From the NCBI GenBank assembly GCA_021162805.1, contig JAGGXZ010000224.1:1-64000 (forward strand): 64,000 nucleotides of DNA. The letters run 5' to 3'. Below, in pieces: positions 56,650 through 62,991 of the stretch. This stretch comes from Candidatus Poribacteria bacterium. Lineage in GTDB: Bacteria; Poribacteria; WGA-4E; B28-G17. The translations under genes were made by a program, and so were the position numbers. Positions within the stretch are counted from its first letter, which is position 1. Each line of letters opens with the position of its first letter. The notes below the pieces were generated by a model. That model was not told where the DNA came from and ran no database searches. It was given only the letters and a program-made list of their open reading frames with translations.

Positions 56650-56703
56650 GCGGATACATCTCTCTTCTTCGACCATGCCCGCCGCAATCCCCTATGAAGC
56701 GGG

Positions 56704-56752
56704 ATAGGAAAACACGTTGAACGTTCAAACGTTGAACGTTTTAACGTTTATC
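56704..56752. mobile_element. 49-bp palindromic insert in CRISPR repeat 1
   Basis: Inserted inside the repeat, flanked by AGCGGG on both sides (56698-56703 and 56753-56758), a 6-bp duplication of repeat sequence. It starts ATAGGAAAAC, contains CGTTGAACGTT twice, and ends ACGTTTATC. The repeat grows from 37 to 92 bp. Confidence 0.85.
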
Positions 56753-56831
56753 AGCGGGTCTTGGTTTGTCACGCGGAAGCCCATCCACAAGCGCGTAGAG
56801 GCCGTGGTGTCGCAATCCCCTATGAAGCGGG

Positions 56832-56880
56832 ATAGGAAAACACGTTGAACGTTCAAACGTTGAACGTTTTAACGTTTATC
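56832..56880. mobile_element. 49-bp palindromic insert in CRISPR repeat 2
   Basis: Identical in sequence, site and flanking AGCGGG duplication to the insert in repeat 1, 128 bp away. Confidence 0.85.
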
Positions 56881-57328
56881 AGCGGGTCTTGGTTTGTCAC
56901 CTAACGCTACTGTTGCCTTACAGCGATATGTCATTTCGTCGCAATCCCCTATGAAGCGGGTCTTGGTTTGTCACTGAGTGATTCAGAGTGGCTAGTGGAA
57001 AGCGAAACATGTCGCAATCCCCTATGAAGCGGGTCTTGGTTTGTCACTTAGAATTTTTAGTGGAGGTGCAGTAATGGACGAGGGTCGCAATCCCCTATGA
57101 AGCGGGTCTTGGTTTGTCACATAAGCGAGGAGGAGCAAGGACACCTCAGAATCAGAGTCGCAATCCCCTATGAAGCGGGTCTTGGTTTGTCACGGCAACC
57201 CGCCAAACGCGAGACTTAACGGCAGGTAACTGTCGCAATCCCCTATGAAGCGGGTCTTGGTTTGTCACATCGAAAGAGACGGCGAACTAGTCAAGGCTGA
57301 GGATGGTCGCAATCCCCTATGAAGCGGG

Positions 57329-57377
57329 ATAGGAAAACACGTTGAACGTTCAAACGTTGAACGTTTTAACGTTTATC
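57329..57377. mobile_element. 49-bp palindromic insert in CRISPR repeat 8
   Basis: Identical to the inserts in repeats 1 and 2, but separated from them by five uninterrupted repeats (3-7). Confidence 0.85.
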
Positions 57378-57457
57378 AGCGGGTCTTGGTTTGTCACAGA
57401 GGAGGAGAGAGAATGAGAGGAACTGAGATAATGAGTCGCAATCCCCTATGAAGCGGG

Positions 57458-57506
57458 ATAGGAAAACACGTTGAACGTTCAAACGTTGAACGTTTTAACG
57501 TTTATC
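57458..57506. mobile_element. 49-bp palindromic insert in CRISPR repeat 9
   Basis: Identical to the other three inserts, adjacent to the copy in repeat 8. All repeats from 57565 rightward are uninterrupted. Confidence 0.85.
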
Positions 57507-60500
57507 AGCGGGTCTTGGTTTGTCACCCAGGATCTAGGCTTATCTGAGGCGCAAGTCTTGCAGAGTCGCAATCCCCTATGAAGCGGGTCTTGGTTTGTCA
57601 CTCAAAGGACAGAAAAACTAGGTGCACCCATGCAGGGTCGCAATCCCCTATGAAGCGGGTCTTGGTTTGTCACTAAATGATGCCTGGGCCCACAAGCTGC
57701 TGAAGGCAAGTCGCAATCCCCTATGAAGCGGGTCTTGGTTTGTCACAATTGCCCAGGGTGCGATATCCCTGGGGGGTATGTGGGTCGCAATCCCCTATGA
57801 AGCGGGTCTTGGTTTGTCACCTTCACGGTGGCCCGTGACGGCCGGGTCCTGGCAGTTGTCGCAATCCCCTATGAAGCGGGTCTTGGTTTGTCACCAAGAG
57901 CATCGAGACGGTACAACTGCACGGCAACATGTCGCAATCCCCTATGAAGCGGGTCTTGGTTTGTCACGGGGATACGTCCCCCTTGACCCCAACGACACTG
58001 AGGTGTCGCAATCCCCTATGAAGCGGGTCTTGGTTTGTCACATAAGGGGGTCTTCACCCTCATGGATGTTGTTGCCGTGTCGCAATCCCCTATGAAGCGG
58101 GTCTTGGTTTGTCACAATGCTATCCTTCGATTTACTCGCCCACGGTGGGGTGTCGCAATCCCCTATGAAGCGGGTCTTGGTTTGTCACTAGGCCAGGACC
58201 CGAGTACTCTAAATGAAGATGCTCGTCGCAATCCCCTATGAAGCGGGTCTTGGTTTGTCACATGGTTGAGATAGGTATAACACCTCCAGTTGGTGTAAGT
58301 CGCAATCCCCTATGAAGCGGGTCTTGGTTTGTCACCCCCAGCTCCCAAAAACAAAGAGGAGGTACTACTACCAGTCGCAATCCCCTATGAAGCGGGTCTT
58401 GGTTTGTCACGCTCCTGCCTTAATGGCAGGAGGATCTTTGAAAATTGTCGCAATCCCCTATGAAGCGGGTCTTGGTTTGTCACTGGATCAACTTCCTTCC
58501 AAAGGTAGACCTTCTCCTTGTCGCAATCCCCTATGAAGCGGGTCTTGGTTTGTCACCTTGAGGAGGGCAAGGGGCTGATATCGTGGAATAGCTGTCGCAA
58601 TCCCCTATGAAGCGGGTCTTGGTTTGTCACAGAGGAGGTTTTGAGATGATCAAACTAAACGAGGGCGTCGCAATCCCCTATGAAGCGGGTCTTGGTTTGT
58701 CACCCAGAGGCTCCAGAAGGCTGGGTTTAAGGCAGTCAGTGTCGCAATCCCCTATGAAGCGGGTCTTGGTTTGTCACGAGGCAACGATTAACAACAACGT
58801 GCTCGTTGTCACTGTCGCAATCCCCTATGAAGCGGGTCTTGGTTTGTCACAGAAGAAGGGAAGGAGGGGACGATTTCGTTCATCATGTCGCAATCCCCTA
58901 TGAAGCGGGTCTTGGTTTGTCACTGAGGGGCGATTGATTGAGACCACAGATATAATCCAGTCGCAATCCCCTATGAAGCGGGTCTTGGTTTGTCACAAGT
59001 AGCCGAGAAGGCTGAGGGTTGGGAGTATAACTTGTCGCAATCCCCTATGAAGCGGGTCTTGGTTTGTCACCCAAAAACAAAGAACCGAAATAAGGAGGTT
59101 TTGAGAGTCGCAATCCCCTATGAAGCGGGTCTTGGTTTGTCACCAGTTAAGAAACTGCGCTAGCCAGGTGCTCCGGTTGTCGCAATCCCCTATGAAGCGG
59201 GTCTTGGTTTGTCACCCTAGAAGAGGGGGAGGGGATGATATCCTTTATTTCGTCGCAATCCCCTATGAAGCGGGTCTTGGTTTGTCACCGTGCTCGTTGT
59301 CACTTTCAAACCCGTTAGGCAGTGTCGCAATCCCCTATGAAGCGGGTCTTGGTTTGTCACGTTAAAGAGATAGTAGATATCTGGTTATTTTATAAGGGTC
59401 GCAATCCCCTATGAAGCGGGTCTTGGTTTGTCACGAAATAGACGTTAAAGAGATAGTAGATATCTGGTTGTCGCAATCCCCTATGAAGCGGGTCTTGGTT
59501 TGTCACAGGTGAGAGAATGATGGTCACGGTAGAGATTGAAGGTGTCGCAATCCCCTATGAAGCGGGTCTTGGTTTGTCACTACGGTCCGGCTCAACGTCA
59601 AATCAGATGCCGAGTCGGTCGCAATCCCCTATGAAGCGGGTCTTGGTTTGTCACTATAGAGGAGCATCCAGATCGCACCGACCCAGAATGTCGCAATCCC
59701 CTATGAAGCGGGTCTTGGTTTGTCACGTAAAGCGAGGGCCTTCAATAGATGATCTGTGCAACGTCGCAATCCCCTATGAAGCGGGTCTTGGTTTGTCACG
59801 CTGAGAAGCTTAAGGAATATCGAAAGTGGCTCTAGAGTCGCAATCCCCTATGAAGCGGGTCTTGGTTTGTCACATCGAGTTCGTACTCAGGTACGGAAGA
59901 GGTGCATCTAGTCGCAATCCCCTATGAAGCGGGTCTTGGTTTGTCACCAACAGGAGGAGTCGGTTCTCGAAGTTGAGGATTTTGGTCGCAATCCCCTATG
60001 AAGCGGGTCTTGGTTTGTCACGAAATAGACGTTAAAGAGATAGTAGATATCTGGTTGTCGCAATCCCCTATGAAGCGGGTCTTGGTTTGTCACAACGTAC
60101 TCGTTGTCACTTTCAAACCTGCCAGGCAGGTCGCAATCCCCTATGAAGCGGGTCTTGGTTTGTCACGTGATGGCTCCTACCTTAATGGTAGGAGAGATCT
60201 TTGTCGCAATCCCCTATGAAGCGGGTCTTGGTTTGTCACTAGCGGAAGATCCTGTTAGGTTGAATGTAGATGGTGTCGCAATCCCCTATGAAGCGGGTCT
60301 TGGTTTGTCACAGGGCTCCGTTATGAGGATCTCGTCCTCCCCCGAAGGTCGCAATCCCCTATGAAGCGGGTCTTGGTTTGTCACAACCGAAATAAGGAGG
60401 TAGAGCAATGATCAAACTAAAGTCGCAATCCCCTATGAAGCGGGTCTTGGTTTGTCACTAAGGAACGCGCGACGCATCCACAACAACTACGCCGTGTCGC

Positions 60501-62670
60501 AATCCCCTATGAAGCGGGTCTTGGTTTGTCACGAAGGAGCTCGTAGACAACCCGAAGGATCCTGTAGAGTCGCAATCCCCTATGAAGCGGGTCTTGGTTT
60601 GTCACTCACCCTCCTCAAAGAGGATGAAAACGGCCCCGTAAGTCGCAATCCCCTATGAAGCGGGTCTTGGTTTGTCACCGAAGGGGAGGCAATCGATTTC
60701 GAAGGAGGTGTTTCGTCGCAATCCCCTATGAAGCGGGTCTTGGTTTGTCACAGAGCCGGATCCGCAAGGACCGGCTCGGGCAAGAACCGTCGCAATCCCC
60801 TATGAAGCGGGTCTTGGTTTGTCACCTCCTGGAGGGCCTGAAATATGGCGGATGTCGCCTTGTCGCAATCCCCTATGAAGCGGGTCTTGGTTTGTCACCA
60901 GAAACCTCTCTCCGCACAAACTTGTCGTTCTCGTTGTCGCAATCCCCTATGAAGCGGGTCTTGGTTTGTCACCGAGGCGGCGAAAAGCCAAGGCCGTACA
61001 ACGAGGTGTCGCAATCCCCTATGAAGCGGGTCTTGGTTTGTCACAGAACCTCCACCCAGTTAACAAAAGAAGAAAGAGAGGGTCGCAATCCCCTATGAAG
61101 CGGGTCTTGGTTTGTCACTTTCAAACCCGCTAGGCAGTACTCAGCTGAATGTCTGTCGCAATCCCCTATGAAGCGGGTCTTGGTTTGTCACTGACTACGG
61201 TGATCTGGTCCCCCTCCCGACCGGTTAGTCGCAATCCCCTATGAAGCGGGTCTTGGTTTGTCACGTTGATAAACGGGGTGAGACTCTTTATTCGCGATAA
61301 CGTCGCAATCCCCTATGAAGCGGGTCTTGGTTTGTCACCAAGCATAAGTTTGCGGGGTTTAGGCGATAAGGAGGTGTCGCAATCCCCTATGAAGCGGGTC
61401 TTGGTTTGTCACCGGAGGATTCCACCGCTTGGTGAAGACGCCGGTAGAGTCGCAATCCCCTATGAAGCGGGTCTTGGTTTGTCACATTCCAAATGCTTCT
61501 CAGAAGGCTCTCTAAAGAAGTGTCGCAATCCCCTATGAAGCGGGTCTTGGTTTGTCACACTCGCGGATGAAGCCGGGAAAAAGATAGTAGACCTGTCGCA
61601 ATCCCCTATGAAGCGGGTCTTGGTTTGTCACTAAATCTATAAAAAGGGGATGATGAAAATGTATAATGTCGCAATCCCCTATGAAGCGGGTCTTGGTTTG
61701 TCACAGCCCATATCAGGAGGGCTTATCGTCAGACGGGACGAAAGTCGCAATCCCCTATGAAGCGGGTCTTGGTTTGTCACTTGGTTACTTGTTCAGGAAC
61801 CGTTGGAAGATTATCCTTAGTTAGTCGCAATCCCCTATGAAGCGGGTCTTGGTTTGTCACTGGGAGGAGTATGTAAAGCGAGGGCCTTCAATAGATGGTC
61901 GCAATCCCCTATGAAGCGGGTCTTGGTTTGTCACGAGGAGGTGTGAGGATGGAAGCCAAAACCCTCATTGTCGCAATCCCCTATGAAGCGGGTCTTGGTT
62001 TGTCACAATCACCGTGAAACCGTAAGGAGGTTGGTTTCCCCAAGTCGCAATCCCCTATGAAGCGGGTCTTGGTTTGTCACCTGGGGGTGGCCGCCCAGGG
62101 CCTGATGAGCTAGGCCGTGTCGCAATCCCCTATGAAGCGGGTCTTGGTTTGTCACCCGGAACCGGGGAAGTGGTTCCGGCTCTATAAGGACCTGTCGCAA
62201 TCCCCTATGAAGCGGGTCTTGGTTTGTCACGATTCAAACGGTCTGGATAGAAGTGTTTCCCCAGTGTCGCAATCCCCTATGAAGCGGGTCTTGGTTTGTC
62301 ACGAAAACCTCAAGTTGATTTTCCCCCTTCCATTAGATTATCGCAATCCCCTATGAAGCGGGTCTTGGTTTGTCACGTAAGGGCTTCAAAGCCCTTGCAA
62401 AGAGCCGGGTCCGTCGCAATCCCCTATGAAGCGGGTCTTGGTTTGTCACTCTTCGGAGCAAAACTTTACGATGAACAGCTGCAAAGTCGCAATCCCCTAT
62501 GAAGCGGGTCTTGGTTTGTCACAGAGTTAGCTGAGAAGCTTAAGGAATATCGAAAGTGGTCGCAATCCCCTATGAAGCGGGTCTTGGTTTGTCACGTTTC
62601 CTGTTTATGAACCATCCCAGAGGTTATATCTCTGTCGCAATCCCCTATGAAGCGGGTCTTGGTTTGTCAC

Positions 62671-62920
62671 GCCCCCCTCTCCAGCCCTTATGAATACTGG
62701 GCTGAAAGGGCCGTTTCCGCTAACCTCCTCCAGAGCAACCGGAAAACCCCCTTTTTTGAGGAGGGAATATTCGATTGTCAAAGAGCGAAAACCCAGATGC
62801 CGTAAGAGCTCATGCCCGTTTTCGACCCTTCCGCTAACCTACCCCCCTTTTTCGGGGGTTTCGGAGGTTAGCGGAGGATCTGCCGACAGGGTTAAAGGCG
62901 GAGGCATCATTACCTCCGCC
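62671..62920 (-). promoter_or_regulatory. CRISPR leader region with two hairpins
   Basis: A 250-base noncoding stretch between the last good repeat and a degenerate one. It holds an inverted repeat with arms TCCGCTAACCT (62830-62840) and AGGTTAGCGGA (62865-62875) around C and G runs, and an 8-bp hairpin GGCGGAGG / CCTCCGCC (62897-62920). Read leftward, that hairpin is followed by TTTAA and could attenuate transcription from the promoter to its right. No cas2-like frame is present. Confidence 0.55.
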
Positions 62921-62956
62921 GTCGCAATCCCTATGAAGCGGATCTTGGTTTGTCGA
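62921..62956 (-). repeat. Degenerate CRISPR repeat next to the promoter
   Basis: A 36-base version of the repeat: one C lost from the C4 run, GGGTC changed to GGATC, and TCGA instead of TCAC at the end. It is 250 bases from the main array and lies at the predicted transcription start. Confidence 0.85.
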
Positions 62957-62962
62957 TATTCG

Positions 62963-62991
62963 ATTATAATCGATCTTTAATATGTTGTCAA
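62963..62991 (-). promoter_or_regulatory. Perfect consensus promoter reading into the CRISPR array
   Basis: On the - strand TTGACA (62991-62986), exactly 17 bp, TATAAT (62968-62963). Transcription would start near 62956, in the degenerate repeat, and run leftward through the leader into the array. Confidence 0.8.

What the first reader, a model, noticed from the sequence alone, without database searches (positions are those of the whole stretch)
56773..62633. Spacers are mRNA-sense on the + strand and sample translation starts, so crRNAs would be antisense to transcripts
Seven spacers carry a Shine-Dalgarno motif followed by ATG in + orientation (57048-57083, 57398-57434, 58631-58666, 59507-59543, 60385-60421, 61632-61667, 61935-61969). 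At least three more carry a stop codon followed by a Shine-Dalgarno motif (59071-59106, 61339-61375, 62007-62043). I found none with the same layout on the other strand. Nearly all others have an open, protein-like + frame (for example VLVVTFKPARQ, LEEGEGMISFI). The array is transcribed from the - strand, so crRNAs would pair with mRNA. Such a one-sided library is known for RNA-targeting type III systems and for reverse-transcriptase-Cas1 acquisition from RNA. The excess of gene starts hints at sampling of mRNA 5' regions rather than DNA.
Basis: partly seen in the sequence, partly recalled or inferred. Interest (0 to 1): 0.9.

Follow-up and report, generated by a model that had tools for sequence, protein, structure and literature searches.

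The report
mRNA-directed CRISPR spacers beside reverse transcriptase
A bacterium's long CRISPR memory bank stores viral fragments almost all in the orientation that lets its guide RNAs pair with viral messenger RNA. This is what an RNA-targeting (type III) defence needs, and here it sits beside a reverse transcriptase–primase, but related arrays without a reverse transcriptase show the same pattern, so it does not prove that the memories were copied from RNA.

Summary
The array (56681-62670, 79 repeats, 78 spacers) has a strongly one-sided library. A codon model spacers sense on +, against 77.7% correct for true sense fragments; this implies about 94% sense (bootstrap 75-100%). All overlapping or homologous spacer pairs share orientation, none oppose. 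Shine-Dalgarno–ATG motifs: 10 on +, 0 on -, about 2-4 times uniform sampling of coding strands. The open-frame argument fails: + carries more stops (143) than - (101).

Beyond the window lies a complete type III-D locus: cas1, a 953-aa reverse transcriptase–primase fusion (CART-CAPP type), cas2, Csx1, Csx21, Csm/Cas7s, Csx10, Cas10 and Cas6. The RT is not fused to Cas1.

The proposed cause is not supported. Type III arrays in genomes with no reverse transcriptase hit show the same strand bias (60/82) and start excess (10 vs 0). Type I-like arrays show neither (130/248; 3 vs 7). Several start-spacers carry an upstream stop codon: internal gene junctions, not mRNA 5' ends. Hairpin spacers are also over-represented (6 with ≥7-bp stems; 0.7 expected). 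No protospacer was found. I rate this a well-equipped new member of a known kind, with an under-described acquisition preference.

The parts
56681..62670 (-). CRISPR array, 79 repeats of 37 nt (crRNA sense GTGACAAACCAAGACCCGCTTCATAGGGGATTGCGAC), 78 spacers of mostly 35-38 nt; leader side is the right end
   Evidence: repeat ends in ATTGCGAC on the - strand; cas genes to the right on the - strand
57048..57083 (+). spacer 4: stop, SD, ATG (TTAGAATTTTTAGTGGAGGTGCAGTAATGGACGAGG)
57398..57434 (+). spacer 8: SD-ATG
58631..58666 (+). spacer 24: SD-ATG (MIKLNEG), same junction family as spacers 30 and 48
59071..59106 (+). spacer 30: end of upstream gene (KNKEPK-stop) then SD: internal gene junction
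59507..59543 (+). spacer 36: weak SD-ATG
60385..60421 (+). spacer 48: stop, SD, ATG (PK-stop ... MIKL)
61339..61375 (+). spacer 61: stop then SD
61632..61667 (+). spacer 65: SD-like GGGGA then ATG
   Evidence: SD5 rule with GGGGA
61935..61969 (+). spacer 69: SD-ATG
62007..62043 (+). spacer 70: stop then SD
58411..58446 (.). spacer 21: perfect 8-bp hairpin, homologous to spacer 45 (60167-60202) with a compensating base-pair change; the only spacers with a weak viral-contig homologue (L174)
62920..62954 (.). degenerate repeat 249 bp beyond the array, followed by leader-like TCGATATTCGATTATAATCGATC, a sequence also present after a repeat copy beyond cas6 (contig 77967)
63141..64000 (-). cas1 (337 aa; runs past the window to 64154). 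Beyond the window, in window coordinates on the same contig: RT-primase fusion 64156-67017, cas2 67023-67304, Csx1 67320-68585, Csx21 68601-68912, Csm3-like 68950-69963, Csx19 69968-70564, Csm3-like 70516-71418 and 71393-72223, Csm2 72220-72630, Csx10 72657-73850, Csm3-like 73762-74463, Cas10 74518-76608, Cas6 76511-77542

Best explanation
This is the array of a complete type III-D CRISPR-Cas locus with a CART-CAPP (reverse transcriptase fused to primase-polymerase) adaptation module. The array is transcribed leftward. About nine in ten spacers are stored so that the crRNA is complementary to viral mRNA, where the Csm/Cas7-Cas10 complex would bind transcripts and signal to Csx1 (inferred from gene families). 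The one-sided orientation is most likely kept mainly because only crRNAs that pair with transcripts protect, as in type III systems generally. The excess of translation-initiation junctions and of hairpins is a second layer. Selection does not readily explain it, and it most likely reflects which viral nucleic acid is captured: exposed or structured stretches of transcribed regions, as RNA or as displaced single-stranded DNA. Shown: gene content, strand bias, start and hairpin excess, and that none of these is confined to RT-bearing loci. Inferred: selection as the main source of strand bias, and the capture preference. Not shown: that any spacer here came from RNA.
For: Locus content. RT-primase relatives, including solved CAPP (7nqd, 7nqf, 7p9j), Cas6-RT-Cas1 (7kft) and CaCART (8bgj) chains. 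Strand bias. Start excess against phage and host nulls. Same bias in other RT or RT-primase loci (24/30, 39/56, 12/16 and others; pooled 177/260, SD-ATG 23 vs 2), in a primase-only locus (58/76), and in RT-free type III loci (60/82, SD-ATG 10 vs 0); absent from 30-nt-repeat type I-like arrays (130/248, 3 vs 7). No RVT_1 match in the RT-free control genomes. The two largest control loci are type III-A with cas1 and Csx1-like effectors. Hairpin excess 6 vs 0.7 shuffled, p = 4e-4 against a 1.2% genomic rate; also in other type III arrays. Literature: 65% coding strand on average in type III and 88% in Moraxella III-B (PMC8482600); selection creates the bias in Thermus (PMC7515739); start-codon and attenuator-hairpin enrichment on the coding strand in RT-free S. 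thermophilus III-A (PMC9048733).
Against: No protospacer was found, so strand is inferred statistically. Newer spacers are not clearly less biased than older ones (27/39 vs 31/39; 16 of the newest 20), whereas a selection-only account might predict weaker bias in the newest. Control arrays are few, and one (L147) supplies most RT-free start hits, some from duplicated spacers (7/72 after removing overlaps). The classifier is weak in some GC-rich loci (accuracy 0.5-0.65).
Confidence: 0.72

Rival explanations
1. Acquisition from mRNA: the RT-primase copies viral mRNA, preferentially near translation starts or 5' regions, and Cas1-Cas2 integrates the product in a fixed orientation. The library is therefore one-sided at birth.
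For: RT with an intact YADD motif fused to a primase domain, next to cas1 and cas2. CART-CAPP enzymes prime DNA synthesis on RNA in vitro (PMC10415136). Bias is about as strong in the newest spacers as in the oldest. Start excess 10 vs 0.
Against: RT-free type III loci show the same bias and start excess. RT-linked systems tested experimentally show no strand bias at acquisition except at rRNA genes (PMC9048733). Several start-spacers span a stop codon and so are internal junctions, not 5' ends.
Confidence: 0.2
2. Selection only: spacers come from both strands of DNA at random and only transcript-complementary ones persist. Start and hairpin excesses are sampling noise or reflect compact viral genomes.
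For: Thermus type III work (PMC7515739). Bias present with and without RT. Start excess is modest against the host null after removing overlaps (p = 0.05).
Against: Hairpin excess recurs in several type III arrays (11/67, 10/76 and 4/35 against about 2, 1.2 and 0.5 shuffled) and selection for accessible targets would not favour hairpins. No clear loss of bias in the newest spacers.
Confidence: 0.25
3. Composition artefact: the viruses are purine-rich on one genome strand for reasons other than transcription, and the + strand only looks like mRNA.
For: Purines 57% on +; shuffles alone give 6.2 vs 1.2 SD-ATG.
Against: Same-orientation overlapping pairs, a shared peptide in diverged spacers 23/27/32, gene-end/gene-start junctions, and no bias in type I-like arrays analysed the same way.
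Confidence: 0.04

Closest known systems
CART-CAPP (RT fused to CRISPR-associated primase-polymerase), e.g. Caloramator australicus CCJ33120 (PMC8211822, PMC10415136)
   Same: N-terminal group-II-intron-like RT plus AEP primase domain in one protein, next to cas1 and cas2
   Different: 953 aa here against 713 aa; a long middle region and a C-terminal Mu_Gam/Gp157-TOTE-like domain; linked here to a complete type III-D operon and a 78-spacer one-sided array
Streptococcus thermophilus type III-A acquisition pattern (described in review PMC9048733)
   Same: enrichment near start codons and at hairpins on the coding strand
   Different: that system has no RT and the spacers were newly acquired; here they are resident spacers of unknown source
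Moraxella type III-B arrays (PMC8482600)
   Same: strong coding-strand bias (88%)
   Different: measured there with protospacers; here inferred at about 94% without them
RT-Cas1 systems (Marinomonas mediterranea III-B, Vibrio vulnificus III-D, Arthrospira)
   Same: type III with RT in the adaptation module; spacers with no known source
   Different: RT here is not fused to Cas1; those tested in assays acquire in either orientation (PMC5576922, PMC9048733)

Membership tests
Type III-D CRISPR-Cas | Cas10 large subunit with GGDD palm | tested here: met
   PDLC00919/PDLC01529 E = 1e-39/2e-38; ALGGDDLSL in the sequence
Type III-D CRISPR-Cas | Csx10 (Cas5 of III-D), Csx19 and several Csm3/Cas7 proteins | tested here: met
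   Cas5_IIId 2e-50, Csm3 up to 3e-52, Csx19 7e-22, Csm2 2e-25
CART-CAPP adaptation protein | RT domain and AEP primase domain in one protein | tested here: met
   RVT_1 2e-34 and AEP-TOTE 7e-40; PADLOC RT 3e-91 and PrimPol 6e-72; YADD and DVD motifs in the sequence
CART-CAPP adaptation protein | next to cas1 and cas2 | tested here: met
   cas1 ends 1 bp away, cas2 93 aa on the other side
RT-Cas1 fusion family | RT and Cas1 in one polypeptide | tested here: not met
   cas1 is a separate 337-aa ORF
Transcript-directed (RNA-targeting) spacer library | crRNAs antisense to transcripts well above 50% | tested here: met
   statistical, not by protospacers
Spacer acquisition from RNA | RT-dependent spacers from RNA (e.g. 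across spliced introns) | not testable with these tools
   no protospacers found

The most novel reading that the evidence does not exclude
Type III adaptation modules, with or without an RT, preferentially capture translation-initiation junctions and hairpins of transcribed viral regions, and the RT-primase of this locus turns such structured transcripts into spacers. If so, the sense orientation would be set at acquisition.
Probability: 0.22. Interest if true: 0.68.

Novelty: new member of a known kind. Interest (0 to 1): 0.42.

Why it matters
How type III systems obtain spacers that match transcripts, and what the CRISPR reverse transcriptases and primases do, are open questions. This locus joins an RT-primase to a large one-sided library in which start junctions and hairpins are over-represented, and the comparison with RT-free relatives says that the sequence pattern alone cannot be read as RNA capture. 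It also shows that spacer orientation can be scored without protospacers, through a codon model, overlapping spacers and initiation motifs. That is useful for RT-linked arrays, whose protospacers are rarely found (PMC5513706).

Tried and rejected
Protospacer searches: all spacers against phage records (one chance-level hit) and against the genome and 97 relatives (only the array itself plus two hits at E = 0.02-0.07); a selection of spacers against plasmids; peptide EATINNNVLVVTFKPVRQYSAECL against phages; exact or back-translated patterns for a few spacer groups against IMG/VR. Two contigs matched short cores. L173 matches the 17-mer AACCGAAATAAGGAGGT in the same stop-SD-ATG layout and is likely chance. 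L174 matches the hairpin of spacers 21/45 (28/36) inside a gene on the opposite strand; this is ambiguous because the stem is palindromic and both frames stay open. Only that contig was found again with its protein. A genome-contig search with the RT-primase found nothing. The open-frame argument was rejected. Snap-back cDNA as the source of hairpins was considered because several stems abut the sense 5' end here; rejected as general because stems in other arrays abut either end.
Full report
Setting. The window is bases 1-64000 of a 100,945-bp contig of a 4.35-Mb draft genome in 232 contigs. The array was parsed as 79 copies of a 37-nt repeat with 78 spacers. The repeat ends in ATTGCGAC on the - strand, and the cas genes follow on the right on the - strand, so the leader is taken to be on the right and crRNAs are the reverse complement of the + strand spacer text.

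What lies to the right. The contig was extended to 82,499. In order from the array, all on the - strand, are: cas1, a 953-aa protein with an N-terminal reverse transcriptase and an AEP primase domain, cas2, a CARF-HEPN Csx1, Csx21, a Csm3-like protein, Csx19, two more Csm3-like proteins, Csm2, Csx10 (the Cas5 of type III-D), another Csm3-like protein, Cas10 and Cas6 (cas2 named from its sequence and position). This is a complete type III-D locus. The RT-primase matches solved structures of CAPP primase domains, the Cas6-RT-Cas1 protein and the Caloramator CART-CAPP RT. It belongs to the CART-CAPP architecture described in PMC8211822 and PMC10415136. The RT is not fused to Cas1.

Is the library one-sided? 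Three tests that need no protospacer agree. First, a codon model trained on 96.5 kb of host genes.7% of held-out 36-nt sense fragments correctly and of 78 spacers + (p = 2e-5). The implied sense fraction is 0.94, with a bootstrap interval from 0.75 to above 1. The result survives removal of overlapping spacers (51/71) and of all start-like spacers (47/65); among confident calls it is 28/32. Second, spacers that overlap or are homologous to each other ({34,35,43}, {40,77}, {39,68}, {26,33,44,58}, {24,30,48}, {21,45}) are all in the same orientation, and no opposite-strand pair rises above noise. Third, spacers 23, 27 and 32 share a peptide in one + frame although their DNA has diverged.

Is there an excess of starts? 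The looser SD-ATG rule finds 12 on + and 0 on -, but shuffles that keep dinucleotides already give 6.2 and 1.2. The stricter rule gives 10 and 0. Uniform sampling of coding strands would give 2.4-2.6 (phages P23-45 and E2) or 3.7-4.4 (host operons). After removing overlaps it is 8/72, p = 0.002-0.05. I take this as a real but modest excess of two- to four-fold. Several of the initiation-site spacers include the stop codon of an upstream gene (for example 30, 48, 61, 70), so they are internal junctions of operons and not mRNA 5' ends. The claim that other spacers have open + frames is not evidence, because - has fewer stop codons.

Is it due to the reverse transcriptase? I fetched RT and RT-primase loci from other genomes and Cas10 loci without RT, and scored their arrays with locus-trained codon models. 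RT-linked arrays: 177/260 called sense, SD-ATG 23 vs 2. A primase-only locus: 58/76. RT-free type III loci (L147, L148, L151, L154): 60/82, SD-ATG 10 vs 0. Arrays with 30-nt type I-like repeats: 130/248, SD-ATG 3 vs 7. RT-free and RT-linked type III arrays do not differ in start rate (p = 0.54), while all type III arrays differ from type I-like ones (p = 2e-6). The RT-free genomes have no match to the RT family, and the two largest RT-free loci are ordinary III-A operons with cas1. The pattern therefore goes with type III, not with the RT.

Hairpins. Spacers with a perfect stem of 7 bp or more number 6 of 78, against 0.7 in shuffles and a genomic rate of 1.1-2.3% (p = 4e-4 at 1.2%). The same excess is seen in other type III arrays (11/67, 10/76, 4/35) and less in type I-like ones (6/240 vs 2.5). 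Selection for effective targeting would hardly favour hairpins, so this speaks for a preference at capture. A review (PMC9048733) reports such preferences, for attenuator hairpins and positions just after start codons on the coding strand, in the RT-free III-A system of S. thermophilus, and attributes them to single-stranded DNA structures.

Literature on strand. Type III spacers match the coding strand in 65% of cases on average and 88% in Moraxella III-B (PMC8482600). In Thermus, without RT, the bias arises by selection and is absent from unselected spacers (PMC7515739). Marinomonas RT-Cas1 acquires in either orientation (PMC5576922).

Conclusion. The step from one-sided library to 'sampled from mRNA 5' regions' is not supported: the same signature occurs without a reverse transcriptase. 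Acquisition from RNA here remains possible and untested.

Noticed in passing
56703-56752, 56831-56880, 57328-57377, 57457-57506: Four of the array's repeats at the old (left) end are interrupted by an identical insert (GATAGGAAAACACGTTGAACGTTCAAACGTTGAACGTTTTAACGTTTATC plus a repeated AGCGG). It occurs nowhere else in the genome within 3 mismatches, but a shorter variant sits in the orphan repeat beyond cas6.
   Followed up: partly
62671-62990 and contig C224:77967-78080 (L004 15468-15580): A repeat copy followed by the same leader-like sequence TCGATAT(T/C)CGATTATAATCGATC lies on both sides of the cas operon; the array-side copy is degenerate and separated from the array by 249 bp with a 13-nt inverted repeat.
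   Followed up: partly
L087 4405-4440 and 6757-6793 (contig C185): Two lone near-copies of this CRISPR repeat in opposite orientation, 2.3 kb apart, flank other genes on another contig.
   Followed up: partly
59435-59469 and 60022-60056: Spacers 35 and 43 are identical and spacer 34 overlaps them by 26 nt: repeated capture of, or duplication from, one viral site.
   Followed up: no
58411-58446 and 60167-60202: Hairpin spacers 21 and 45 are homologous and differ by a compensating base-pair change in the stem; a viral contig (L174, 7127-7147) carries the same hairpin inside a gene.
   Followed up: partly
L091, L158 (G243) and L112 (G333): Arrays of an RT-primase locus and a primase-only locus have very many hairpin spacers (11/67 and 10/76 with stems of 7-13 bp), more than the window array.
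   Followed up: partly
contig C183:19-580 (L086) and C151:78897-79286 (L133): The genome holds a second small array with 30-nt repeats next to another cas1, and a second Cas10 on another contig.
   Followed up: no
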